From Ignavibacteria bacterium (GTDB lineage: Bacteria; Bacteroidota; Ignavibacteria; Tepidaquicellales; Tepidaquicellaceae), in assembly GCA_036262055.1 (NCBI GenBank), contig DATAJP010000002.1, positions 1,012,177-1,076,176 on the forward strand: 64,000 nt of DNA, written 5' to 3'. The number at the start of each line of letters is the position of its first letter. Position 1 is the first letter of the stretch. The notes beneath the pieces are model-generated. The model searched no databases. It was given only the letters and a program-made list of their open reading frames with translations, and was not told the origin of the DNA. This document shows positions 37,492 through 53,675 of this stretch, in pieces. The position numbers were made by a program, and so were the translations under genes.

Positions 37492-37767
37492 ATGTGGAAT
37501 TCAAACACAAACGGTTCAACACAGCCAGTAGAAACAAACCAGAAAACAAAAGTAGTATGCAATTCAAACGATTATGACGTAACAGGACTCTCAGGAGTTC
37601 AGTTAGCCGAAAGAGTCAAGCAGATCGCAAGAGAGAACTCAATTGGAAAGTTTGATATCTTCGACAGCAATAATAAGAATATCAGTCCTCAAGATATTCA
37701 AAATGGAAGCTTCGAAGGAGACCTGAGCATTATCAGATTCAATGTCGCCGCGGAAGTAAATATTTAA
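37492..37767 (+). CDS. Ubiquitin-like (beta-grasp) protein
   Basis: 91 residues with a good ribosome site (AAGGAAAAC). Residues 1-18 are polar and disordered; from KVVCNSNDYDVTGLSG there is a beta strand, a helix (VQLAERVKQIARENS), strand KFDIFDS and IIRFNVAAEVNI, consistent with a beta-grasp fold. The gene is followed by E2-, E1- and JAMM-like genes, which is the main reason to call it the modifier. It ends in EVNI and lacks the usual Gly-Gly tail, so either conjugation is non-canonical or JAMM processing exposes another residue. Confidence 0.65.
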   Translation: MWNSNTNGSTQPVETNQKTKVVCNSNDYDVTGLSGVQLAERVKQIARENSIGKFDIFDSNNKNISPQDIQNGSFEGDLSIIRFNVAAEVNI

Positions 37768-37775
37768 AAACATTT

Positions 37776-37871
37776 AAAGGGAAATCTTAATAAAATATTC
37801 CATAGTGTGTTTTTGCTCTTTATAAATGTGGATTAAAAGTTAAAAATGATCGGAATATGAGATTTCCCTTT
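37776..37871 (+). terminator. Long-stem terminator/attenuator between Ubl and E2 genes
   Basis: AAAGGGAAATCT (37776-37787) pairs perfectly with AGATTTCCCTTT (37860-37871), and inside it ATATTCC (37795-37801) pairs with GGAATAT (37852-37858). The stem is followed by TCTATTT. It lies 8 bp after the Ubl stop. It could cut expression so that the modifier is made in excess over the enzymes. Confidence 0.55.
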
Positions 37872-37896
37872 TCTATTTAGCAACTAAATAAAAAGT

Positions 37897-38784
37897 ATGT
37901 CAGAAAACATATCAACTAATGGGCATTCGCCAGGAAGTTTGGAGTTGTTCCCGCCAGCCTCCATTCAGACATTCATAAAAAGGATTAACAACTCTGATTT
38001 AAACAATCTAAATGAGGATAATACACCGGCGTGCAGCATCAAATCAACAGAAACACTTATCAATGAAATAGAATCCATTGTTAATCTTGACGAGTTCTAC
38101 GGCAGGCTCGAAGACTCAAAACAGGAAAAGGTAACAATAAAGGAAATCAAAATTGAATCTGATATAGACTTCTTAAAAAGTGTTAAGCAGCTGAAGACAG
38201 TATTCAAAAATGAATTACAGGTTATTGTAAATACAATTAGGGAAAAATATCAAACCGAGCTCTTTAACCTGCAGTCTATACGACAAAAAGAAACATTCGG
38301 ACAGCCGCTTATTAATCTTATCCAAAAATTAAACAGCGCAGGCTACTGTCTTGTAATGAAAGATTCAGTTGTGTGGGCATATAAATATTATGAAGATCCA
38401 TATGAAGTGACCATAGGTATTCAGGATACAGGTACTTCCGAAGAACAAGATGAATACATTGTCGAATATGACGAGCATGTCTGTAAGATAAAAAGCATTT
38501 ATGTCAATCTTATGCATCCTAAAATCACTTTAGGAACAATAATGCTTAATACGGAAGGAAGACATCCGAATGCCCAAGACGGAAACGGACTAACTACTGT
38601 ATGCAGCGGAGACCTCGAAGACAGAGAAATAAACCTTAATAATCCTGAAAGCTTAATTTCTCTTTTGAATGAAATCTGCCGGACATATGAAATAATGAAC
38701 CTTACATCTGCGTATGAACAGCCAAGAGGTACATATTCTAAAGTTGAAGGCGGAAGAGAGGCTGTATGGTCAAGCAATGAATAA
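37897..38784 (+). CDS. E2-like conjugating protein with N-terminal extension
   Basis: 295 residues. N-terminal tail has ELFPP (residues about 16-20), also found in the JAMM protein. Residues about 80-150 are coiled-coil-rich helices. The C-terminal part looks E2-like: IYVNLMHPKI, then RHPNAQDGNGLTTVCSGDL, in which Cys236 sits where E2/PRTRC-B-like proteins have their ICLG catalytic cysteine after an HP motif, followed by a helix NPESLISLLNEI. Fits an E2 or RWD-type conjugating enzyme that takes the modifier from E1. Assignment rests on motif order and context. Confidence 0.65.
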   Translation: MSENISTNGHSPGSLELFPPASIQTFIKRINNSDLNNLNEDNTPACSIKSTETLINEIESIVNLDEFYGRLEDSKQEKVTIKEIKIESDIDFLKSVKQLKTVFKNELQVIVNTIREKYQTELFNLQSIRQKETFGQPLINLIQKLNSAGYCLVMKDSVVWAYKYYEDPYEVTIGIQDTGTSEEQDEYIVEYDEHVCKIKSIYVNLMHPKITLGTIMLNTEGRHPNAQDGNGLTTVCSGDLEDREINLNNPESLISLLNEICRTYEIMNLTSAYEQPRGTYSKVEGGREAVWSSNE

Positions 38785-38833
38785 AACTATTAACAAGTTT
38801 TAAACCTAATTTAACAATTAAAAAAAAATAAAC

Positions 38834-39658
38834 ATGTCAGAAATAACATCAATAACAGAAGATATTTACAAAAGACAACTGAACTTTGCAGACTTTCCAA
38901 AGAAAAGCGCAATGGTAATTGGTCTCGGCGGAGTCGGAAGCTGGCTTGCCCTGGATTTGGCACTCATAGGAATAGGAACTCTTATTCTTATTGACCCTGA
39001 TAACATCGAAGCATCTAATCTAAACAGGACTTTCTTCAGGTTAAGTGATATAAATAGAAAGAAAACCGAAGTAATTGAAGAACAAATAAATGAAAGAAGA
39101 CCTGATACAATCATTATTACTATAAATGATTACTTCAATTCATCTCATTTAAATAAGTATGAAGTTGATTACATATTCGACTGCACGGATAATCTTGCAA
39201 CGCGCAGGATTATCGAAGACTTAAGAAATAAAGTATCTTTGGGATTAGAAGAAATTGATAAAATCCCATTTAACCTGCCGGATAATGAAGAAGGAACTAT
39301 ATACAGAATACCCGGTGCTCCTAGCATGACAATGACAGATGAAGAATACAGAAACATTCCGAATAATAAACACCGAACTCCCGCTGAGCTTCACGTAATT
39401 GAAATGAATAAATTACATATACCCTATTGCAAATGCGGATATGATGGAGTATTTGGTACCATTCTCATAAATGAATTTAACCGCGGCAGATGGGGTGAAG
39501 ACGGTTGTTATTCTATTGTTTCAAGTCTGTTTGCTACTCCTCAGATGCTTGCAGCAATGGCAGTTATTGAAATGCTGCTTGTAGATTGCAATCAAAATAT
39601 ATGCATTAACTTTAATATCAAACATCTTCTCAAGAACTATAAAGGAGACAAGCAATGA
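38834..39658 (+). CDS. E1-like ThiF/MoeB-family adenylating enzyme
   Basis: 274 residues. Rossmann ATP-binding signature GLGGVGS (30-36), acidic and Asn-Arg residues LIDPDNIEASNLNR (52-65), Lys76/77 and DCTDN (116-120) are intact. Cys199/Cys201 in HIPYCKCGYDG and Cys225 are candidates for the thioester site. ThiF-type enzymes adenylate the C-terminus of ubiquitin-like proteins. Overlaps the JAMM gene start (39655). Confidence 0.88.
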   Translation: MSEITSITEDIYKRQLNFADFPKKSAMVIGLGGVGSWLALDLALIGIGTLILIDPDNIEASNLNRTFFRLSDINRKKTEVIEEQINERRPDTIIITINDYFNSSHLNKYEVDYIFDCTDNLATRRIIEDLRNKVSLGLEEIDKIPFNLPDNEEGTIYRIPGAPSMTMTDEEYRNIPNNKHRTPAELHVIEMNKLHIPYCKCGYDGVFGTILINEFNRGRWGEDGCYSIVSSLFATPQMLAAMAVIEMLLVDCNQNICINFNIKHLLKNYKGDKQ

Positions 39659-40398
39659 AAAACATATTTTTGAATGATGATAGCAGTAACTTAACTAGAT
39701 CAGACACAAAATCCGGCAATAAAGAGCTCTTCCCTCCACCTGATAAGCCGAAAGACTCCGGTTGGGATTCAGATATTAACATCATCCGTTCCGTCAAAGT
39801 TATTATACCAGTAAAACTCTTGATAATATGCAACCACATCTCAAGAATGGTTGATGATAACGAATTTTCTATTGTAACGGACATACTGAGTAAAGAAAAC
39901 TTAAATGAACTAAAGCTTGCAGAGTATTATTACATTCCAAAACAGAAAGTAACATCAGGTTCTATCGATTACATGCCGGATAAGTTCAGCCATAATGTTG
40001 TAATACACAGACATCCGGACGGACTTAACAGTTTTTCAGGAACAGACCATAGCTATATTAACCAAAACTTTGAACTAAGCCTTCTCTTTACTAAAAAAGA
40101 TGGATTTGTTAACGGCATTTATAACATGAAAGTAGAAGAAAGCATTATTCCATTACCTGTTGAATCAATTATAGACTACGGAATTGGATCAATTGACATA
40201 TCAAACATTGAATGCGCAGGCATAATCGAAAAAGAATTCAGCATAAAATCTGACAGAAGAAGAGATTACAAGCACAGAAAAGATAATTTCAGAAGCTCAT
40301 ACATAGATAATGATGATGTTATGTGGGAAATAATGGAACTTAAAAGCAGAATGGACATGATGGAAGAAGCATTGATGAGCGGTGAAATTATCGGATAA
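39655..40398 (+). CDS. JAMM/MPN+ metalloprotease-like protein (deubiquitinase-like)
   Basis: 247 residues. The zinc motif H-x-H-x7-S-x2-D is exact: His118-Arg-His120 ... Ser128-Gly-Thr-Asp131 (HRHPDGLNSFSGTD), with Glu70 in DNEFSIV a likely general base. N-terminal tail has ELFPP (24-28). A C-terminal helical part (about 200-247) is charged. In bacterial systems such enzymes process the Ubl precursor or remove it from targets. Translationally coupled to E1. Confidence 0.82.
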   Translation: MKNIFLNDDSSNLTRSDTKSGNKELFPPPDKPKDSGWDSDINIIRSVKVIIPVKLLIICNHISRMVDDNEFSIVTDILSKENLNELKLAEYYYIPKQKVTSGSIDYMPDKFSHNVVIHRHPDGLNSFSGTDHSYINQNFELSLLFTKKDGFVNGIYNMKVEESIIPLPVESIIDYGIGSIDISNIECAGIIEKEFSIKSDRRRDYKHRKDNFRSSYIDNDDVMWEIMELKSRMDMMEEALMSGEIIG

Positions 40399-40761: not shown

Positions 40762-40810
40762 GAATTTGACGCTATAAACTTAACTTCATTACAAACCAAG
40801 CACTTAAACA

Positions 40811-40837
40811 AAAATGCCCGTTTAAAATGGGCATTTT
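40811..40837. terminator. Bidirectional terminator
   Basis: AAAATGCCC and GGGCATTTT form a perfect 9-bp stem around a 9-nt loop, with A/T runs on both flanks. It ends the minus-strand block at 40836 and the plus-strand cassette. Confidence 0.8.
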
Positions 40838-43800
40838 ACAAGTATCTTTCTTCATCATCAATCTTTTCTGCTTTAATATATTTATTTAAATAATTAATAT
40901 TTTCATTTGCCCAAGTTCTTATTATATCATTTTTATGGTTTGATAAATTTTCATAAAGAATTAGTTCAGATCTAAGTAATGGAACAAGTGATCCAGTCCA
41001 AGAATACGAACCCATATTTGCACTTATTTCATTCAATACCTTTCTATCACTTCCAAATTCATTTATAAATTGCAAAGTAAAGGAATGCCATTCGTTTCGT
41101 TTTTTATTACTAAAAATGGGCAAATATCTTGCTATTCTCTGTGGTGCTAATGGAATATTTTTTTTACACCAATCCAAAACTAATTCATTATTACTCTTAA
41201 ACAACAAACCATTCTTATTGTCAAAATTTTTTTGAAGGTCTTCAGAAAAATTATCATTAAATTCAATTCTCGAGCCAATTAAATGCATTAAATGATAGTA
41301 TGTCATAAAATCTGAGAGAAGAGCTTGAGATAATACTGGCCAAATTTCTGTAAAATATTTAGGTAATAAATGTGTAAGAATATTTTGAATATAAAGTTCA
41401 AAATTATATTTATAATCTTCTTGACTACACATATCAATAATTTCATTCATTATGTGTATAGCAAATAAAGTATCATTATCTTCTTCTAAAATTTTAACTG
41501 TATACTGTTCCCAATAGTGCTCTATCATATTGAGATTATGACTACCAATTAATCCTTTTTTAGACAGTATTTCTTTAATTCCAGTTTTGTATTGAGCCCA
41601 ATTTTGTTTATTCCTAAATGCCAAATTAGAATAAATTGATAACGCAATTAATGCTCCCAACAAATTAAACTCTGATATTTTTTTTAATAATTTATAATTT
41701 GTTTCAAATTTTAATTTTTCAATACTTCTACTATATCGAAAACTAAGAAGTAGTTTAAGATTGTTTAACTTATTGGCTAAATTTATTAAGTTATCAAATA
41801 TTTCTTCATCTACATATGTTGAACTGCTGATATCAAACGAATACTTTGCAATTTTATCATCATTGATAAACTTTAAAATTATATCTTTCACAATTTCTTT
41901 ATTTTCAATCCCGATTAAAAATCCAATAAATACAATTATATTTAAATTTTCATTAGAATTTTTAAAATAATTAATTGATTTTTCTATAAAAACATTTCGA
42001 TTTTCTGAATTCAGTAGTGTCCCCAATTTTTCACCGAAATAATATCCATTATGTTGATAATCATTGTAAATAATATCAAAAGAGTATATGAGTTTGTTAA
42101 AATTATTACCAAATTCAATTGCTATTTTCTCGGAAGTTTGCTTTAGTTTTTCAGTATAACTATCATTCTCTCCAATTTCATCTTCAATTGCAGAACTTTT
42201 AATAAAAAGTTTATATTTTTCTAGAATATCTTGTGGGGTTAACTTTAAAATAAAATCTGACAATGTTGTCTTTTGTTCTGGTGTTAATATATCTTTCTCA
42301 TATTTCAAGGATAATTGTAAATCATTTCTTGCCTCATTCCATAAGAAATTTTTCTCGGTTGCAATTGTTTTAATTATTGGTATAATAAGATCAAACAAAC
42401 CGTGACTTATTAAGCCTCTTATTGAATTTGAAAGTATATTTTCTGCCTCGTTGGAAAACTCATTTTTTTCTTGATAAATAAGATATAATAAATTGAGACA
42501 TTTTATCCAATAATCATCACGCTCTTTAAATGTTGGTTTAAAATCAATTAATGATTTCGAAGAACCTTGATTTTCGGCACCGACGTCACGTGTAAAATAG
42601 TGAGTATGAAGTGCAGACTTTAATGCATCTACTGCGATTTTCTTGTAGTCAATATCACGCGAATAAGAATATTTGATAATATTAAATCGCTCCTCAAGAG
42701 TTGCCTCTGTTGCCGGCAAAATTACATGAAATCTTTTTAAAAACTCACCGGTTGCATTATTTGCCCAACTTTCATTTTCAGCTACAGCAAAATTTAGTAA
42801 CACCTTCATTCCATCACTAAAAGTTTCTTTCCTCCATACAATTTTTTCTAAAGCCCAAATCAAATTCCTTCTTCCTTTATCAATTTTAAATAAATTTTCT
42901 TTACTCATATTTCCAAATATTCTAACTAATGCATTGGTACATGCTGATGGGTTCACTTCAACTAAAGAGCGGAAGAGGCGTGAACCCAGTTCAGTATTAA
43001 GGACTTCCGCTTTTCCAAAAGGGGCTTGTTCTCCACATAATTTTTCAACGAATTCTTTCGTCTGTTCTAAAAAATCTAAATATCTTAATTGATCACATAG
43101 AGCTGAGCCGAGATTATTACTCGTTATATCCAATAATATATCCTCTAAAATATCTGGTTGGACAGTTTCCCACCATTTAGCAGCTAATGTAATAGCTAAT
43201 GGTTTAGGTTTTAAAAAAATATACCTACCTCCTTGTTCTATCAAACCTTTTTCTTTATATTTTACACAGGTTTCATAAAATTTTTTCTTGCAAGTTTCAT
43301 CGTCAAAATTTAGACCGCAAAGTCTTTTGTTACACGCTACAAAATTCATTTCAACTTGTCGATCTTCACTAAATCCAAGTTTATCAAAAATTGCTAGCGT
43401 TTTTAAAACCTCAAACTCATCATTATTTATATCACTTCTTCCAAATATAAGTTTTCTTAAAAGACTATCATTATTTATTCTTCCGATATTGGAATCCTCT
43501 TTTAAATATTGGTCACTTAATAAAACAGCTAGAAGTGGAAATCCCTTCACAAATTCTTTGATCTTATCTACATCTTGATTATTTAGATCCGGGAATAAAT
43601 CTTTGATAATTTCTGTTATTATATTATCTAAATTTTCCGGTTTAATTAATATTGAATTTATTTCATCAATACTATCATATCTTTCAGCCGTTTCGTAATC
43701 TATTGAGATTAGATTAAGCTTACTATCGATTCTTTTAATTTCGCCTTGCAATTTTTGATGCAAAGTTAGTTCACAGTTATCTACAATAAGAATGCCTTTT

Positions 43801-44702
43801 AAACCATTATCTATTAATTTAGTTACAAAGCCATGTATATCCGTTCCAGGAATTAATGCATCAAAATAAATTATTGAACTTTTTAAAAGTTGTGTTTGTA
43901 AATTGTCATTAGAATTATTTTTAAAAGATTCATAAATAAGTCGAGTTTTACCTAATCCTGATAATCCATTTATTCTAATAGTCTGTCTAGTCTTTGCGAC
44001 TGAATTTTGTAATTCAGTTACTTTTTTTTGAAGAAATGAGTTGCTTCGAAAAATATTCTGAAAATCTGCTCGCATTCCTAATATATTCATTGATTTGATA
44101 CCATCAGGAATTCTGATACCTACACGGCAATCATATAAATAATTAACTGCTTGGAAATATTGATTTGCCCAATCAGCGATTTTATTTGCATCATATACAT
44201 CCACTTTTATGTCATTATAATTTTTAAAATCTACATCTTTAAAGGCTTCTTTTACTTTTTCAATTCTTTTCTGTATAGCATTCTTTGTATAATTTTTATT
44301 TATAAATAAAATATAGGAACCATCTTTGTCAATTACATCTTTAATCCGTTTTTTTATTGTAGTAGTTAGATTATAAACTTTACCATTTACATTTATTTTA
44401 CTTATTTTATCGGAAACCTCTAATTTGCACTGTTCAGGGCTCATTGGAGATGCTTTCGATTGAAAAATTGTTAATGGAGAGTTAATATAATTACTATTTT
44501 TATACCACTCATTTTTATCTGTTTCTTCCCACTCTATTCTTGCATCCTCTCCTCCATCTGCGACTGTTAAATTTAATGGAACTGTAACAGCTGATAGTGG
44601 AATCTCTGATTTTATTGCTTCTAATTTTAAAAGGAGTTTTAGAAGACTTACAAATTGAAAAGGGTTTAAACCTTCAATATGTTTAAAGGTTATTGGTTCC
44701 AT
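40836..44702 (-). CDS. Nuclease-STAND NTPase protein (Avs-like)
   Basis: 1288 residues. Residues about 40-90 show a PD-(D/E)xK-like pattern: ADGGEDARIEW (Glu52, Asp53) followed by TIFQSKA (Gln81-Ser-Lys83). A STAND-type P-loop follows with Walker A GLSGLGKT (246-253) and Walker B ILIVDNC (about 304-310). The remaining 900 residues are helical repeats. This nuclease, NTPase, repeat-sensor order is that of Avs antiviral proteins, which recognise phage proteins and cleave DNA. It starts 4 bp after the helicase stop, so it belongs to the same operon. Which phage protein is sensed is unknown. Confidence 0.75.
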   Translation of the reverse strand: MEPITFKHIEGLNPFQFVSLLKLLLKLEAIKSEIPLSAVTVPLNLTVADGGEDARIEWEETDKNEWYKNSNYINSPLTIFQSKASPMSPEQCKLEVSDKISKINVNGKVYNLTTTIKKRIKDVIDKDGSYILFINKNYTKNAIQKRIEKVKEAFKDVDFKNYNDIKVDVYDANKIADWANQYFQAVNYLYDCRVGIRIPDGIKSMNILGMRADFQNIFRSNSFLQKKVTELQNSVAKTRQTIRINGLSGLGKTRLIYESFKNNSNDNLQTQLLKSSIIYFDALIPGTDIHGFVTKLIDNGLKGILIVDNCELTLHQKLQGEIKRIDSKLNLISIDYETAERYDSIDEINSILIKPENLDNIITEIIKDLFPDLNNQDVDKIKEFVKGFPLLAVLLSDQYLKEDSNIGRINNDSLLRKLIFGRSDINNDEFEVLKTLAIFDKLGFSEDRQVEMNFVACNKRLCGLNFDDETCKKKFYETCVKYKEKGLIEQGGRYIFLKPKPLAITLAAKWWETVQPDILEDILLDITSNNLGSALCDQLRYLDFLEQTKEFVEKLCGEQAPFGKAEVLNTELGSRLFRSLVEVNPSACTNALVRIFGNMSKENLFKIDKGRRNLIWALEKIVWRKETFSDGMKVLLNFAVAENESWANNATGEFLKRFHVILPATEATLEERFNIIKYSYSRDIDYKKIAVDALKSALHTHYFTRDVGAENQGSSKSLIDFKPTFKERDDYWIKCLNLLYLIYQEKNEFSNEAENILSNSIRGLISHGLFDLIIPIIKTIATEKNFLWNEARNDLQLSLKYEKDILTPEQKTTLSDFILKLTPQDILEKYKLFIKSSAIEDEIGENDSYTEKLKQTSEKIAIEFGNNFNKLIYSFDIIYNDYQHNGYYFGEKLGTLLNSENRNVFIEKSINYFKNSNENLNIIVFIGFLIGIENKEIVKDIILKFINDDKIAKYSFDISSSTYVDEEIFDNLINLANKLNNLKLLLSFRYSRSIEKLKFETNYKLLKKISEFNLLGALIALSIYSNLAFRNKQNWAQYKTGIKEILSKKGLIGSHNLNMIEHYWEQYTVKILEEDNDTLFAIHIMNEIIDMCSQEDYKYNFELYIQNILTHLLPKYFTEIWPVLSQALLSDFMTYYHLMHLIGSRIEFNDNFSEDLQKNFDNKNGLLFKSNNELVLDWCKKNIPLAPQRIARYLPIFSNKKRNEWHSFTLQFINEFGSDRKVLNEISANMGSYSWTGSLVPLLRSELILYENLSNHKNDIIRTWANENINYLNKYIKAEKIDDEERYL

Positions 44703-44706
44703 TATT

Positions 44707-46824
44707 TTATGTTATTACTTTTATTTTTTCCAAAAATAATTTTGTGTTTTGAAAATCAAAATAATTATCTCTTAATAGATTTTTCTGATATTTAATTGGT
44801 AAATATTTTCCCCACTTAGAAAAATTTAGTAATGACGAATTAGCCAAAAGTTTTTCCTCAATTTTAGGTTCTATATTATTTAGTAGTACACATAATCTTT
44901 TAATGAGGTTATTAAAATCTTTATAATCAATAGAAATCTCAAAACTACTACTATTTTCATTATATATTGAATTAATTTCTGATTCATTTAATAAAAATTG
45001 CAAACTTTTATTGACTCTAGTTCCCTGAAATGAATATAAAAGTGTTTTATCATGTTTAGCAATAACTGGTCTATCTGTTGCAAAATTTTCTATCTTAAAA
45101 TGAGAAAATTCTTTTCGAAATATTTGTAAAATATCTTTACAAGTATCATTTAACTCTTCATAAGAAATTTCAGTGAATAAAATTTCTAACATCTTTTCTC
45201 TTATCTTTGGATGAATATTTCCACCAGTTCCTAAGAATAAGGGTTTTTTCCCATCTTTAGCTGGTATAACTTCAACTTTATTTGATTTCAGATCTACATC
45301 AACAATTTTCCATACCTTCGCTGCTAAAAATATATTCTCATTTATTTGCAATTGAGGCGTAAATGGTATTTCACCTATAGACTTTCCACTATTAAGAACT
45401 TTAAGTTGTAATTCAGTTTTAAACATACTGTAAAAATCACGTGAATTCGCTATTTGTTCACCTGCAACTCCAATAATTAACTCATTCTGTAAAAGTTCAA
45501 GTAAATCAGTTTTAATTAGTTCATCTATAATTTCACTTATTTCAGTTTCAGTAATTTTCTGAAATGAAGGATTTGATAAAAGAAGTGATATTAAATCAGG
45601 TTTTGAACATGCGGATAATTGTTTAACAATTGAAAGAGCTTGATGTAATAAAATATCATAAGGTTTTTCCGAAAAATGGACAGGTTCAACAAAACCTTCT
45701 TTATATAATAACCAACAGGCTAAAGACTGTAATAAATTCCATTTATCAGTTGAATATAGTATTAAATTTCCAATTTCACCTTCTCTCCTGCCACTTCTTC
45801 CAACCCTTTGGATAAGAGAAGATACCGAATGAGCTGAATCTATTTGAACGACTTTATCAATTGTTCCAATATCAATTCCCAATTCTAAAGTTGAGGTACA
45901 AGATATACAAAAATTATTTCTTTGATTATTTTTAGCAAAATGTTCTGTGTATTCTCTTAGTTCTTTATCTACTGAAGAATGATGAGAAAAATAATAAAGA
46001 TGGCCTTTTACTTTTTCAGCAATTTTTTTAAGTTTCACCGCAATTTCTTCTGCTCTACCTCTGCTATTAGGAAATATCAATGCTTTATTATCTTTTGTCT
46101 CAAGATATAAATCTTTAATTAAATCTATTGGTAATTCCATAGTATCAGATTCGAAATATTTAAATTGAGCTTCCAATTCACGGGATGTTTTATCGAGTAA
46201 AATTATAGTATTATCTTCATCACATGTTATTTTTTTCGCCTCAACATAATCTCCAATAGTTGCTGAGAGTCCTACTACATTGAACTTATTATTAATTTGT
46301 TTTAGTCTAAAAATAAGTGAGCGTAACTGCGTTCCTCTGTCAGTTCCTAAAAAAGAATGAATTTCATCAATAACAATAAATTTTAAATTTGAGAATAAAT
46401 GTTTTACATTGTAAGGAGCATTTACAAGCATTGCTTCTAGTGATTCGGGTGTAATCAAAACAATATCTCTTGGATTTTTTAAAAGTTTTTGTTTTAAAGT
46501 TTTATTTGCTTCACCATGCCATTTCGTTACATCAATATCTAAATACTTACAAAGTTCTTCAATCCGAACGAATTGATCATTTATAAGAGCAATTAGAGGC
46601 GAAATATAAAGAACTTGAACACCCTTTTCTTGAAAATTCACCTTTGATATGATTGGTAAAAATGCAGCTTCAGTTTTTCCTGAAGCAGTTCTTGATGCTA
46701 AAATATAATTACTATTAGTAGAAATTATTTTAGTTATAGCGGCAAGTTGAATTGGACGTAATGTTTCCCATTTTTTATCATAAATATATTTACGGATAAG
46801 AGGAGATAATAAGGTAAGCGGCAT
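44707..46824 (-). CDS. Lhr-like DEAD/DEAH-box helicase
   Basis: 705 residues. SF2 motifs: Walker A RTASGKT (45-51), DEIH (153-156), SAT (187-189), and motif VI QRVGRSGRREG. The family style (RPIQLAAI..., VGLSATIGDY) is Lhr/BrxHI-like. It starts within the ATPase stop (one-base overlap at 46824). Operon context with DUF2791 and TerB-C points to a DNA-processing defence complex. Confidence 0.85.
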   Translation of the reverse strand: MPLTLLSPLIRKYIYDKKWETLRPIQLAAITKIISTNSNYILASRTASGKTEAAFLPIISKVNFQEKGVQVLYISPLIALINDQFVRIEELCKYLDIDVTKWHGEANKTLKQKLLKNPRDIVLITPESLEAMLVNAPYNVKHLFSNLKFIVIDEIHSFLGTDRGTQLRSLIFRLKQINNKFNVVGLSATIGDYVEAKKITCDEDNTIILLDKTSRELEAQFKYFESDTMELPIDLIKDLYLETKDNKALIFPNSRGRAEEIAVKLKKIAEKVKGHLYYFSHHSSVDKELREYTEHFAKNNQRNNFCISCTSTLELGIDIGTIDKVVQIDSAHSVSSLIQRVGRSGRREGEIGNLILYSTDKWNLLQSLACWLLYKEGFVEPVHFSEKPYDILLHQALSIVKQLSACSKPDLISLLLSNPSFQKITETEISEIIDELIKTDLLELLQNELIIGVAGEQIANSRDFYSMFKTELQLKVLNSGKSIGEIPFTPQLQINENIFLAAKVWKIVDVDLKSNKVEVIPAKDGKKPLFLGTGGNIHPKIREKMLEILFTEISYEELNDTCKDILQIFRKEFSHFKIENFATDRPVIAKHDKTLLYSFQGTRVNKSLQFLLNESEINSIYNENSSSFEISIDYKDFNNLIKRLCVLLNNIEPKIEEKLLANSSLLNFSKWGKYLPIKYQKNLLRDNYFDFQNTKLFLEKIKVIT

Positions 46825-48134
46825 TATATTTCTTCTATACTATCTAAGTTTTCTTGTGGTCTTTCATCTTTAATTTCAATTTCACCAAATAATTTTTTCT
46901 TATCAATTTCAGGATTTTGTCTAATTATACTTAATATATTTAAAAAATCTCTAATAACTTCACGTGGAGTTAAAAATTCATGAGCACCCGGCTTATTGAA
47001 CATCTCTTCCATAAATAGATGAACCTCCGCATCAGAAACATCAAGTGTAATATTATAATTAAATTCAAAGACCTCCTTCAATTTATTCAATAACACAAAA
47101 ACTTGATTATTATCTAAAGGCATTAATCTTATAACTGGTTGAGCAAAATCCCTAATTTCTACAGTTTCAAATTTATTTGTTTCTAATCGCGATTTCAAAG
47201 CTTGATAACTAAACAATCCTCTTCGTTCATTTTCTAGAAATTCTTTGGTTCCAGCAAAATTAATAAAGAAATTAGAAATTTTACCTTGAAAACAATCATT
47301 ATAAATAGATAAAATTTTTTCATAATTCTTTTCTCTCATAACCGAAGTTGAAATCTTATACAAATTTATAGCTTCATCAAGATTTATCATAAAACCATTA
47401 TAACCAATGTTAACAAACAATTTGCAAAAATTCTTTAGCATATCATAATAGTTAATATCATTTATTATTTCACGAACTCCTAAATCTTGTCTTGCCTCAG
47501 TTTTAGTTCTGTATTCTCCTTTCAACCATTTCAGTGCATTTTTTTTTAACTGTTCATTATCTGTTATGTAACCTTCATAATATTTCATTACTACAACTCC
47601 AAAATCAAAACCTCCGGTATCAGTAATTTCATTTATTGTTTTAAGAATATTATCATTAATTAAATTTAAATACTTTTCATTTCTTATCTCTGATAAATGG
47701 ATATTATTTTCTCTTGCTGTTTTTTCTACAACATTAACAATCCATTTTTCTAATAACGTAGGAAGCGCACCTCCTTCAGGTTTCGTTTGAATTGAAATAT
47801 TATCTATTATTGCGGAATACAATATTACACCTTTAAAATCATTGGAATACAATCTATTATCTGGCGTAAAATCTGCATTTGCTACTACAAACTTTTGTTT
47901 CAAAGCAACTGTATTTAATAAATGAAGCATAAAAGATTTTCCAGAACCAAAATCACCGATCCAAAACTTTACGATACTATGCCCATTTTTTACATCCTCT
48001 AACGCTTGTACAAATGCGTCAATCTCGGAGGAACGTCCAACTGTAATATGTTGAACTCCTATTTTAGGAACCACACCTCCTAATAAAGAATTTATAATTG
48101 CAGTTGCTTCTTTTGGCTTAATATTAATTGCCAT
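46824..48134 (-). CDS. BrxD/DUF2791-like P-loop ATPase
   Basis: 436 residues. Walker A GDFGSGKS (60-67), Walker B around MINLDEAINLY, a RHIT-like segment GVQHITVGR near residue 26. This is the DUF2791 type, the BrxD ATPase of BREX type 2 and of other helicase pairs. Start ATG at 48134, overlapping the previous gene by 11 bp. Likely loads or activates the Lhr-like helicase downstream. Confidence 0.82.
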   Translation of the reverse strand: MAINIKPKEATAIINSLLGGVVPKIGVQHITVGRSSEIDAFVQALEDVKNGHSIVKFWIGDFGSGKSFMLHLLNTVALKQKFVVANADFTPDNRLYSNDFKGVILYSAIIDNISIQTKPEGGALPTLLEKWIVNVVEKTARENNIHLSEIRNEKYLNLINDNILKTINEITDTGGFDFGVVVMKYYEGYITDNEQLKKNALKWLKGEYRTKTEARQDLGVREIINDINYYDMLKNFCKLFVNIGYNGFMINLDEAINLYKISTSVMREKNYEKILSIYNDCFQGKISNFFINFAGTKEFLENERRGLFSYQALKSRLETNKFETVEIRDFAQPVIRLMPLDNNQVFVLLNKLKEVFEFNYNITLDVSDAEVHLFMEEMFNKPGAHEFLTPREVIRDFLNILSIIRQNPEIDKKKLFGEIEIKDERPQENLDSIEEI

Positions 48135-49827
48135 TTAACTTTATTTTTTGATAATAATTTTGGTTTAAAGAGTAATTTACTTCTAAATCTTCAATTAAAA
48201 TATCATCCAAAAATTCATAACAGGATTCATTTATGCTATCTATCAATTGATTTTTAAAGACTCCATTGTTTTTTGAAAATGCCTCAATCTCATTAACCGA
48301 AAGATTAAACGAATTTTTACTGAATAATTCAATTAACTGTATTTGAATAGGATTTAACTCAATTTCGTCAATAAATAACTTTTGAAGATTATTTTCAGTT
48401 TTTATAATTATATCTAATTCCATTTCTTCACTATTTATTTGTTTGATATTAATGCTCGCATTGCTATCTTCATAGTCATCCTGTAAAAATTCATTTAATA
48501 ATTCTACTGTATTTGAATGCTGACTTTTAACATTATCTATTATTGCTTTATCAAGTTTAATTTTTTTTCGTTTCGGTAAATAAATTTTCTGAATTTGGTT
48601 AATAGCCACATCTAAATTTTTAGTCTTAATTAATTCGCTAACTATTTTTTCAAATTCATGAATTTGTTCAGTATTTTTAAAAAGCGTTTTTTGAATAGTT
48701 TTTGTTAGCTTCTTATTGTCAAATTTATCAGACTTTAAATCATAATATAAATAATGAATATAGAATTTTAAGGATTCAGTATTATCATATTTAGAAATGA
48801 ATTTTGAAGCTTCAAAATAAATATTTTCAACTGAAGAGTTTTTTTTATTAAGTTTAACTAATTCATGAATTTTATCAATAAAGTTTTCTTTTGAGTTCTC
48901 ATTAAAATTAATTGTTAGATGCTCAAGTTTTAATTTCCATCTATTAACATTCTGTATATTTAATTCAATCTCCGTTGCTTCATCCGGTTGGCTTATAGAA
49001 TCAGACGATTCTTTAATTATCTCGTTAACTATTGAGCCTATCCGACTTTCAAATAAGTCTTTTAACTTTGGTTCATAGTATGAAAAATCAGTAGATATTT
49101 TTCGTTTATGATTATACGATTCTCTTAACTTACTCTCTGCTCGTTTAAATATCGTTAAAAAAATATCTGATTCTATTTTTTCTTTTGCCCAAATATATTC
49201 ATAATCAGACCAATAAGTCGCATAAGTTGGGGTATAATTAGTTAATTCCTGTTTGAAGAAATCCACTTCCATTTGTATTGATGAATCATTTCTTTTTAAT
49301 TTATTGTTAAGTGATTTAATTGTTAACAAATAAAGTTTTATCGTTTCTATGCAACAGCCTTCAATAGATAAAAACACATTATTTGGATCCCAAAATTTAT
49401 TTAGCCATGAAACTTCTTGATTACTTAATCCTAATTTTTGTTTATATCTTTTACCTAACTTTAATTCATTATAATTATCTTCATCAATTTTTTTACTATA
49501 AACAGCTTCAGTATTTGGATTATTTTCATTTGAACTGTATGAAATTTGTGGCGGATCAATTTTATAATCAATAGTTACTTCAATGATAGATTTATCTTTA
49601 AATTTATCTTTAGATAATTGGGGCTCTTGCACTTGTGAATTCTTTAATAAATGTTGATTTGTAGCATTATAAGCATTAGGAATTTTATTAATACTATTTG
49701 TTTTATTAGTAGACTTTTTATTGAAATTCTTAATAAATATATAAGTTAAGAATGATATTATAGCAATAATTACGATAAAACTCATAGAAATTAGTAAAAT
49801 ATAAAATAATTTTTCAGTTAGCGGCAC
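48124..49827 (-). CDS. TerB-C-domain membrane-anchored protein
   Basis: 567 residues. One N-terminal TM helix (about 9-33). The C-terminal region (NPIQIQLIELFSKN...SVNEIEAFSKNNG...NESCYEFLDDILIEDLE) matches the TerB-C pattern seen in tellurite/stress-response associated proteins. Middle part helical and Lys/Asn-rich. TerB-N/C proteins are known to travel with DUF2791 ATPases and helicases. First gene of the block; the TM segment may tether the complex. Confidence 0.65.
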   Translation of the reverse strand: MPLTEKLFYILLISMSFIVIIAIISFLTYIFIKNFNKKSTNKTNSINKIPNAYNATNQHLLKNSQVQEPQLSKDKFKDKSIIEVTIDYKIDPPQISYSSNENNPNTEAVYSKKIDEDNYNELKLGKRYKQKLGLSNQEVSWLNKFWDPNNVFLSIEGCCIETIKLYLLTIKSLNNKLKRNDSSIQMEVDFFKQELTNYTPTYATYWSDYEYIWAKEKIESDIFLTIFKRAESKLRESYNHKRKISTDFSYYEPKLKDLFESRIGSIVNEIIKESSDSISQPDEATEIELNIQNVNRWKLKLEHLTINFNENSKENFIDKIHELVKLNKKNSSVENIYFEASKFISKYDNTESLKFYIHYLYYDLKSDKFDNKKLTKTIQKTLFKNTEQIHEFEKIVSELIKTKNLDVAINQIQKIYLPKRKKIKLDKAIIDNVKSQHSNTVELLNEFLQDDYEDSNASINIKQINSEEMELDIIIKTENNLQKLFIDEIELNPIQIQLIELFSKNSFNLSVNEIEAFSKNNGVFKNQLIDSINESCYEFLDDILIEDLEVNYSLNQNYYQKIKLNGN

Positions 49828-50011: not shown

Positions 50012-50881
50012 TTATGAAATTAATTTTAGCTTAATTATATCTTTAGCTAATTGAATTCTTCCTATTGAGTTTAATTTTGAAAGAAATTCTTCTTTCTTTA
50101 TTGTTTTTAAAGTATCGTTATATTTTTTCTTCATCCATAAATATTTTATTCGAATTCCTGGTGACATTTTCTTGAGTCCTTTAACTATAATTGTTCTTAA
50201 ATTATTTAGCCCATTAGCGTAATCATAATTTTGAGCTTCAAGTCCCTCAATTAGTGGTTTAAAATAATCGATATAAAACATTCCATCCGTATCTTGTTCT
50301 AATAAATTTTTTAAATATTTTTCCACTTCGTTTTCATAAATTGCATTAGTATGCATTTTGCATATTTTTACGATTTCATTATCTAGAATTACTCTTGGAT
50401 AATGTGCAGCTTTCGATTCTAACTGATAAGCTTCTACTAATCCTGGACCAAATACGATTTGAAAATCTCTATTTGAATAAATTAATCCCCTCGTTATACC
50501 GCCCCTAACAATAATCTCTTTGTGACTTAAGTTTAATAATAATTCTTGTATTCTAATTAATGTATCTAATAAAACATTAGGTTTATCAAATGGAAATGCA
50601 ATTACAACGCAATCAGAGAAATTTGAAACAAAATATTTAGTGCCTATTACCTCTTGTTCATCAATTTTCAATATCGTTCGAATTGTCATTATACCATCAT
50701 AAATATCAGCTATTTTTTTATTTATTCCTCTTTTCGGTTTATTTGAATATGATTCATTAATTAAATCTTGAAATCCTAAAATATCTAAAAAGATTATAAT
50801 GGAATCTTGATAGTGAATCCAAGTAGATGTTTCGACTGGTTGAATTGAATCAGGCATTAAATTTTTCATTCTTTTTCCCAT
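50012..50881 (-). CDS. Class III nucleotide-cyclase-like protein
   Basis: 289 residues. Two Asp lie where class III cyclases bind metal: Asp33 in FLDILGF and Asp90 in FSDCVVIAF. A conserved-looking block RGGITRGLIY...FGPGLVEAYQLESKAAHYPRV follows. The family is usually unnamed; it resembles cyclases used in defence signalling (Pycsar-like) but lacks an evident effector partner. A catalytically dead relative is possible. Lies between the STAND block and the small RNA-like fold. Confidence 0.55.
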   Translation of the reverse strand: MGKRMKNLMPDSIQPVETSTWIHYQDSIIIFLDILGFQDLINESYSNKPKRGINKKIADIYDGIMTIRTILKIDEQEVIGTKYFVSNFSDCVVIAFPFDKPNVLLDTLIRIQELLLNLSHKEIIVRGGITRGLIYSNRDFQIVFGPGLVEAYQLESKAAHYPRVILDNEIVKICKMHTNAIYENEVEKYLKNLLEQDTDGMFYIDYFKPLIEGLEAQNYDYANGLNNLRTIIVKGLKKMSPGIRIKYLWMKKKYNDTLKTIKKEEFLSKLNSIGRIQLAKDIIKLKLIS

Positions 50882-51903: not shown

Positions 51904-52737
51904 ATGAAAAATATTAAAATATTTATCTTTTCATATGTTATTTTAGTGTGTGGGTTATCTTTTTCTATAACGGGAAAACCTTCAGAAAGTAATTATATTC
52001 CCCAACCATGGGAAGTTCATGTTGTTATGGGAATTCCAACTGACAATGACAATTCCGATGATTATATAATTACACGAGACCAATATGTATTAAGCTATAA
52101 CCAAAATAAAAATGTTTCCAATTGGGCTTGCTGGAACTTAAACGAAGATTGGTTCGGAGATGCGCCGCGGCATTCAGGTTCTTTCTTCAGAGATAATTCA
52201 TTACCTGATGGATTTTATAGAGCAAAACACAATGATTATACAAACTCAGGATATGAAAGAGGTCATATGGTAATGAGTGAGCAAAGAACAAAAAATATTG
52301 AGGACAATGAATCTACATTTATATTAACTAATGTATTTCCTCAAAGAGCGGACCTTAATAAAGGACCATGGGTTAAGCTTGAGTTTTACTGCAATGATCT
52401 GGCAATAGATCAAGACAAAGAGCTTTATATAATCGCCGGCGGAGTTTATGATAATGACAGAAAGCTTAAAGGTAAGGGCAAAGGAAAAGTTACAATTCCT
52501 GACAGCTGTTATAAGATAATTGTGATTTTAAATAAAGGAGAAGGATTGGCCGATGTAGATTCAAATACGCAGGTTATTGCAGTTATGATGCCTAATAAGA
52601 AAGGAATTAAGAAACATAAATGGCAGAGATATATAACGACGATTGATGCTGTTGAGTATTCAACCGGATATGATTTTTTGACAGCTGTTCCTGTTGATGT
52701 TCAGGAAGTTTTAGAAGAGAGAGAGTTTCAGGAATAA
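51904..52737 (+). CDS. Secreted DNA/RNA non-specific endonuclease
   Basis: 277 residues. Signal peptide (residues 5-24). The NUC (NucA/EndoG, beta-beta-alpha-metal) motif is YERGHM with His121, followed by NVFPQRADLNKGPW and LE, the Asn and catalytic-region residues of the family. Exported, so probably degrades extracellular nucleic acid for phosphate or nucleotide uptake, or acts as a toxin. It is 30 bp after the TM protein, so likely co-transcribed. Confidence 0.85.
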   Translation: MKNIKIFIFSYVILVCGLSFSITGKPSESNYIPQPWEVHVVMGIPTDNDNSDDYIITRDQYVLSYNQNKNVSNWACWNLNEDWFGDAPRHSGSFFRDNSLPDGFYRAKHNDYTNSGYERGHMVMSEQRTKNIEDNESTFILTNVFPQRADLNKGPWVKLEFYCNDLAIDQDKELYIIAGGVYDNDRKLKGKGKGKVTIPDSCYKIIVILNKGEGLADVDSNTQVIAVMMPNKKGIKKHKWQRYITTIDAVEYSTGYDFLTAVPVDVQEVLEEREFQE

Positions 52738-53078: not shown

Positions 53079-53675
53079 ATGAGCATTATAATAAAAAGAA
53101 TCCCCAAAAATATAATTAAAATTCCATTACCGGATACATGGCAAGAAACTGGTTATTCCTGCGGCGCGGCCGTTTTGCAATCCATATTAAATTATTATGC
53201 TAAGGGACCAATTGGTGAAAGAAAGGTTGGCTGTGAATTAAATATGACAGAAAATGGAACCGATCCTTATCAAATAGTAAAAGTGCTTAAGAAATATAAG
53301 TTGAAATATAAAGAATTCCGCCCGATGACTACAGAGCAATTAAAGAAGTGCATCGATGAAAAAAAGACAGTCATGATAATGTTGCAGGCCTGGGGATGGA
53401 AGATTAAAAATATCAATAAATATGAGAGATCGTGGAAACACGGTCATTGGATTACTGCGATTGGTTATGATTCCAACAACTTTTACTTTGAAGATCCTTC
53501 TTTAAATAAAACAAGAGGTTTTATTCCAATTGATAAACTTGATTACCGATGGCATGATTGGGAAAATCAAAGTTTGACTTCAAAACGCATAACTACATAT
53601 AATTATGGAATTGCTATATGGGGCAATAAAATCAGAGAAAAAGGAAGTGGGTTGCGAGCGAGAATGATTAGGTAA
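53079..53675 (+). CDS. C39-like papain-fold cysteine protease
   Basis: 198 residues, no signal peptide. Gln22 and Cys28 in WQETGYSCGAAV, His123 in KHGHWITAIGY and Asp139 in YFEDPS make up the C39 Gln-Cys-His-Asp set. C39 domains usually sit on bacteriocin exporters; here the domain stands alone, so an intracellular processing or immunity role is possible. 26 bp after the SFPD gene. Confidence 0.8.
   Translation: MSIIIKRIPKNIIKIPLPDTWQETGYSCGAAVLQSILNYYAKGPIGERKVGCELNMTENGTDPYQIVKVLKKYKLKYKEFRPMTTEQLKKCIDEKKTVMIMLQAWGWKIKNINKYERSWKHGHWITAIGYDSNNFYFEDPSLNKTRGFIPIDKLDYRWHDWENQSLTSKRITTYNYGIAIWGNKIREKGSGLRARMIR

What the first reader, a model, noticed from the sequence alone, without database searches (positions are those of the whole stretch)
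40836..49827. STAND-nuclease plus TerB-C/DUF2791/Lhr-helicase operon
Four tightly packed genes (11-bp overlap, 1-bp overlap, 4-bp gap) combine an Avs-like nuclease-STAND sensor with a TerB-C/ATPase/helicase trio. Each part is known separately; TerB-C with DUF2791 and helicase recalls BREX-type and Ter-linked systems. Having the Avs-like protein in the same transcript suggests a composite defence system.
Basis: partly seen in the sequence, partly recalled or inferred. Interest (0 to 1): 0.75.

Follow-up and report, generated by a model that had tools for sequence, protein, structure and literature searches.

The report
Shango defence operon plus STAND nuclease
Four packed genes in an Ignavibacteria genome are a known three-gene anti-phage system (Shango) with a known kind of nuclease-armed immune sensor added at the end of the same transcript; the parts are ordinary, and this pairing was found nowhere else in the loci searched.

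Summary
In detail: four intact minus-strand genes at 40836-49827, with overlaps of 11 and 1 bp and a gap of 4 bp. The TerB-C/DUF2791/Lhr-helicase trio is a canonical Shango system (SngA 1e-30, SngB 2e-161, SngC 5e-209), not a new Ter- or BREX-linked module. The 1288-residue protein is a homologue of PD-Lambda-4_A (4e-54, full length): an N-terminal PD-(D/E)XK-like motif (E28, D53, Q81-x-K83), a STAND/NB-ARC-fold NTPase and HEAT-like helical repeats. No terminator separates it from sngC, and a clean one follows it, so one transcript is likely. The 'composite system' is not supported. About 90 homologues of the STAND protein elsewhere have no Shango gene within the flanks read (up to 10 kb), and about 35 other Shango loci have no STAND homologue. 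The STAND family is a promiscuous guest: often solitary, otherwise inside type I, III or IV restriction operons, its N-terminal effector sometimes swapped. Shango's 3' end likewise hosts other guests (CD-NTase, CoiA-like nuclease, DUF4238). Best reading: two stacked defence modules, co-transcribed in one lineage. A guard relation, in which STAND fires when Shango fails, is possible but untested.

The parts
48124..49827 (-). sngA: TerB-C protein of Shango, 567 aa, GTG start, one N-terminal transmembrane-like segment (about residues 10-28)
   Evidence: PADLOC SngA 1.2e-30, Pfam TerB_C 9.1e-18; hydropathy peak 2.8 at residue 10, also seen in SngA of L073, L075 and L076
46824..48134 (-). sngB: BrxC/BrxD-family ATPase (DUF2791/PF10923), 436 aa, Walker A GDFGSGKS
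   Evidence: PADLOC SngB 2e-161 (536 bits) against BrxD 148 bits; Pfam BrxC_BrxD 5.4e-142
44707..46824 (-). sngC: Lhr-like DEAD/DEAH helicase, 705 aa
   Evidence: PADLOC SngC 5.4e-209 (694 bits) against BrxHI 434 bits; DEAD and Helicase_C
40836..44702 (-). PD-Lambda-4_A-like STAND protein, 1288 aa: N-terminal PD-(D/E)XK-like motif (E28, D53, Q81xK83), STAND NTPase (Walker A 246-254, Walker B about 307-310), C-terminal helical repeats
   Evidence: PADLOC PD-Lambda-4_A 4.1e-54 over residues 16-1286; invariant residues in alignment; AlphaFold models pLDDT 85 and 83.5; NB-ARC/STAND and HEAT-type structural matches
40807..40836 (-). intrinsic terminator directly after the STAND stop (AAAATGCCC-loop-GGGCATTTTT, about -11 kcal/mol)
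   Evidence: sequence and fold; no comparable site between sngC and the STAND gene

Best explanation
This is a complete Shango anti-phage system followed, in the same transcription unit, by an independent nuclease-STAND immune sensor of the PD-Lambda-4_A family: two layers of defence stacked under one promoter. Shango is inferred to act as a complex of a membrane-anchored TerB-C protein, a BrxD-like ATPase and an Lhr-type helicase working on incoming or replicating phage DNA. The STAND protein is inferred to sit inactive, to bind a phage product with its C-terminal HEAT-like repeats, to oligomerise through its NTPase, and to switch on its N-terminal PD-(D/E)XK nuclease, degrading DNA and stopping the infection with or without death of the cell. 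Shown here: gene content, order, motifs, predicted folds, lack of a terminator between the modules, and lack of recurrence of the pairing. Inferred: the biochemical steps and the independence of the two modules.
For: Trio matches SngA, SngB and SngC in canonical order. Shango alone defends in PAO1 as three genes (PMC10250203). STAND homologues occur without Shango: 0 of 84 loci, 0 of 12 in the phylum. Only 2 of 32 genomes with a STAND homologue have SngB anywhere. In the phylum sample genome-level co-occurrence is weak (2 of 12, Fisher p = 0.11). About 35 other Shango loci lack the STAND gene. STAND homologues are often solitary or lodged in type I, III or IV restriction operons, and the N-terminal effector is swapped for a hydrolase or a TIR-like domain in some, as expected of a self-sufficient sensor-effector. 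No terminator lies between sngC and the STAND gene and one follows it.
Against: The 4-bp spacing is as tight as within the Shango trio. STAND homologues sit inside other defence operons often enough to suggest that co-expression with a host system may matter. The co-transcript rests on sequence only. Both parts were compared with sampled genomes, so rare relatives with the same pairing may have been missed.
Confidence: 0.68

Rival explanations
1. Guard (back-up) relation: the STAND protein monitors Shango or its DNA intermediates and fires its nuclease when a phage inhibits Shango, much as PrrC backs up the EcoprrI type I restriction enzyme (PrrC comparison from general knowledge).
For: Same transcript with a 4-bp gap; relatives lie inside several restriction operons: between hsdS and hsdR or next to hsdR (L108, L117, L021, L087), beside type III methyltransferases (L028, L134, L140), after a type IV enzyme (L022).
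Against: The host systems share no common subunit to guard; a majority of relatives have no tightly linked upstream partner (33 of 91 have one within 150 bp); no second Shango-STAND pair was found.
Confidence: 0.18
2. Obligate four-protein system in which STAND is the effector subunit of a Shango variant.
For: Tight gene packing and shared terminator.
Against: Shango works as three genes (PMC10250203); the closest Shango relatives (L072-L076, and the 55-61% identical SngC of L077-L079) lack the STAND gene; STAND homologues exist widely without Shango.
Confidence: 0.06
3. Chance abutment in a defence-rich region without functional consequence, the two genes not even co-transcribed efficiently.
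For: Shango loci in the phylum have variable neighbours at the 3' end: CD-NTase, CoiA-like nuclease, DUF4238, unknowns, or nothing in the same direction.
Against: Same strand, 4-bp gap, no intervening terminator and a clean terminator after the last gene.
Confidence: 0.08

Closest known systems
Shango (SngA/SngB/SngC; Millman et al. 2022, Johnson et al. 2023)
   Same: Three genes in the same order and tight overlap, all three matching the PADLOC profiles
   Different: SngA is short (567 aa) with an N-terminal transmembrane-like segment; a STAND gene follows in the same direction
PD-Lambda-4 (Vassallo et al. 2022)
   Same: Full-length match of the 1288-aa protein to PD-Lambda-4_A (4e-54)
   Different: PD-Lambda-4_B is absent from this genome and from 12 other genomes of the phylum with A homologues; divergent
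Avs / nuclease-STAND NTPases
   Same: Effector - STAND NTPase - helical-repeat sensor layout, with swappable N-terminal effectors
   Different: No Avs profile matches it in PADLOC; ligand unknown
BREX types with BrxD and BrxHI
   Same: SngB and SngC are homologous to BrxD and BrxHI
   Different: Scores far better with SngB/SngC; no PglZ or PglX among the neighbours scanned
Abortive genes lodged in restriction operons (PrrC in EcoprrI; general knowledge)
   Same: Relatives of the STAND protein are embedded in type I, III and IV restriction operons
   Different: Here the host operon is Shango; guard function not shown

Membership tests
Shango | sngA (TerB domain), sngB (ATPase) and sngC (helicase) as one tight operon in that order | tested here: met
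   SngA 1.2e-30, SngB 2e-161, SngC 5.4e-209 in order, overlaps 11 and 1 bp
Shango | anti-phage activity of the three genes | not testable with these tools
   shown for the PA14 system in PAO1 (PMC10250203), not for this one
PD-Lambda-4 | PD-Lambda-4_A protein | tested here: met
   4.1e-54, residues 16-1286 to profile 18-1278 of 1283
PD-Lambda-4 | PD-Lambda-4_B partner | tested here: not met
   no match in the whole genome; the control E. coli genome rings. So it is an A-family homologue, not a PD-Lambda-4 system
Avs / nuclease-STAND | N-terminal nuclease effector | tested here: inconclusive
   conserved E28, D53, Q81xK83 on the expected helix and strands; no Pfam nuclease match in the window protein, one relative to Cap4_nuclease at 0.02; activity untested
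Avs / nuclease-STAND | STAND NTPase core | tested here: met
   Walker A/B invariant; Foldseek NLR/NB-ARC 2e-6; VIA Z about 13 to ORC/Cdc6, ClpA and NLR chains over residues 199-433
Avs / nuclease-STAND | C-terminal repeat sensor | tested here: met
   864-residue C-terminal part is nearly all helical, pLDDT 83.5, HEAT-type matches with low TM; ligand not testable
Avs / nuclease-STAND | match to a curated Avs profile | tested here: not met
   PD-Lambda-4_A is the only PADLOC family at E <= 0.01
BREX | PglZ and PglX/BrxX with the BrxD/BrxHI genes | tested here: not met
   none among the ten window proteins scanned around the trio

The most novel reading that the evidence does not exclude
The PD-Lambda-4_A STAND family is a generic back-up guard that is plugged into the operons of different DNA-targeting defence systems (type I, III and IV restriction, and here Shango) and fires when the host system is disabled by a phage.
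Probability: 0.15. Interest if true: 0.65.

Novelty: new member of a known kind. Interest (0 to 1): 0.3.

Why it matters
It shows that an apparent composite system is two known modules stacked in one transcript, which matters for how defence loci are counted and named. The wider pattern, one STAND family lodged in restriction operons of three types and once in Shango, with interchangeable effectors, gives a concrete set of loci for testing whether such sensors guard their host systems.

Tried and rejected
A single-sequence scan of genome contigs for the STAND protein found nothing, because homologues are only about 30% identical; the alignment query solved this. No phage record encodes a homologue; four viral contigs hold one. 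BREX membership rejected (scores, no PglZ/PglX). The PD-Lambda-4 two-gene system rejected (no B). Sequence search of solved structures gave only weak STAND matches. VIA-align covered only residues 199-433, so the nuclease part was not tested by structure. Papers linking Shango with a STAND gene: none found in the held library. One PADLOC call failed on wrong coordinates, so some downstream genes of the Pseudomonadota Shango loci (for example the 573-aa gene in L184) stay unclassified.

Full report
Observation. The four genes are present exactly as described: 567-, 436-, 705- and 1288-residue ORFs on the minus strand, 11-bp and 1-bp overlaps and a 4-bp gap. Each has a single terminal stop. The region is AT-rich (24-29% GC against about 32-36% in much of the window). 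The genome is 2.87 Mb. It probably belongs to the class Ignavibacteria: a same-class genome (G156, contig 59 of 24,476 bp) matches in contig length the Ignavibacteria MAG contig fetched as L093; this is inference.

What the trio is. PADLOC profiles identify SngA, SngB and SngC, each as best match, in canonical order. SngB and SngC outscore BrxD and BrxHI by 536 to 148 and 694 to 434 bits. Shango was described as a three-gene system with TerB, ATPase and helicase parts, and shown to protect PAO1 (PMC10250203). The window trio is therefore a member of a known system. Its SngA carries one N-terminal transmembrane-like segment, as do three of its closest relatives, so a membrane-anchored complex is plausible.

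What the fourth gene is. The 1288-residue protein matches PD-Lambda-4_A over its whole length. In an alignment with 13 relatives, E28, D49, G51, D53, Q81 and K83 are invariant in the first 200 residues, and the Walker A and B residues in the next 200. E28, D53 and Q81-x-K83 fit a PD-(D/E)XK core of the QxK type; this is a motif-level assignment supported by the helix-strand order of the model, not by a database nuclease match. Residues 199-433 model as a STAND/NB-ARC NTPase. The part from about residue 465 to the end models as stacked helices of HEAT type. The N-terminal effector is interchangeable in the family: L114-L116 and L118 carry an alpha/beta-hydrolase, and L105, L108, L110 and L117 carry a different domain that looks TIR-like by eye. 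The PD-Lambda-4_B partner is absent from this genome and from 12 others of the phylum with an A homologue, so the gene is an A-family homologue, not a PD-Lambda-4 system.

Transcription. No terminator-like site lies between sngC and the STAND gene. A strong hairpin with a T run follows the STAND stop at once. One transcript ending after the STAND gene is likely, but not measured.

Is the pairing recurrent? In 395 genomes of the same phylum, 15 have a PD-Lambda-4_A match including this one, and 22 have an SngB match, about 20 of them strong. No locus other than the window has both together. Genome-level overlap without the window is 2 of 12 against 17 of 382 (Fisher p = 0.11). Among 80 genome loci and 4 viral loci with STAND homologues and up to 10 kb of flank (57 of 84 loci are 15 kb or longer), none holds SngA, SngB or SngC. 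Of 32 such genomes, 2 have SngB anywhere, and in both the Shango locus lacks a STAND homologue. Ten Pseudomonadota Shango loci and three plasmid-borne Bacteroidota loci with the closest SngC relatives (55-61% identity) also lack it; a few of these are cut short by contig ends.

What each half does elsewhere. STAND homologues are often solitary: 33 of 91 have a same-strand gene of 100 aa or more within 150 bp upstream. Where they have close neighbours, restriction genes recur: type I (L021, L087, L090, L108, L117), type III (L028, L134, L140, and L023 upstream), type IV (L022, same as L111). In L108 and L117 the STAND gene lies between hsdS and hsdR. Shango loci in turn carry different same-strand genes right after sngC: DUF4238 (L060), a CD-NTase (L062, overlapping), a CoiA-like nuclease (L063), unknown proteins (L061, L074), or none. 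Both sides are promiscuous. The window is one combination among many.

Mechanism. The best-supported reading is two stacked modules. Shango acts on phage DNA through its ATPase and helicase (inferred from the parts). The STAND protein senses a phage product with its repeats, oligomerises and activates its nuclease (inferred from the STAND/Avs layout). A guard relation, in which STAND responds to inhibition of its host system, would explain why the family sits in several restriction operons, but these hosts share no common subunit, many homologues are solitary, and nothing here tests it.

Verdict. Observation confirmed; interpretation partly supported; parts known, arrangement seen once. Interest 0.3.

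Noticed in passing
window 37492-40398 (+): Convergently placed compact operon that looks like a bacterial ubiquitin-like pathway: a small 91-aa protein, a 295-aa protein of unknown fold, a ThiF/E1-like protein (38834-39658, Pfam ThiF 2e-28) and a JAB-like protein (39655-40398, Prok-JAB 0.014, with an HxH...SxxD-like stretch)..
   Followed up: partly
L062 6740-7663 (+): A CD-NTase (SMODS, CBASS-type cyclase) overlaps the 3' end of sngC in a Shango locus, followed by further same-strand genes: another stacked pair of defence modules.
   Followed up: partly
L108 9377-13177 and L117 9377-13150: STAND homologues with a TIR-like N-terminus inserted between hsdS and hsdR of type I restriction operons.
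   Followed up: partly
L114, L115, L116, L118: STAND homologues whose N-terminal effector is an alpha/beta-hydrolase (lipase/esterase-like) instead of a nuclease.
   Followed up: partly
window 50012-50881 (-): 289-aa protein upstream of sngA with a very weak resemblance to class III nucleotide cyclases (0.057); relation to the operon unknown.
   Followed up: no
window 51904-52737 (+): Predicted secreted DNA/RNA non-specific endonuclease (Endonuclease_NS 9e-50), near a C39-like peptidase at 53079-53675.
   Followed up: no
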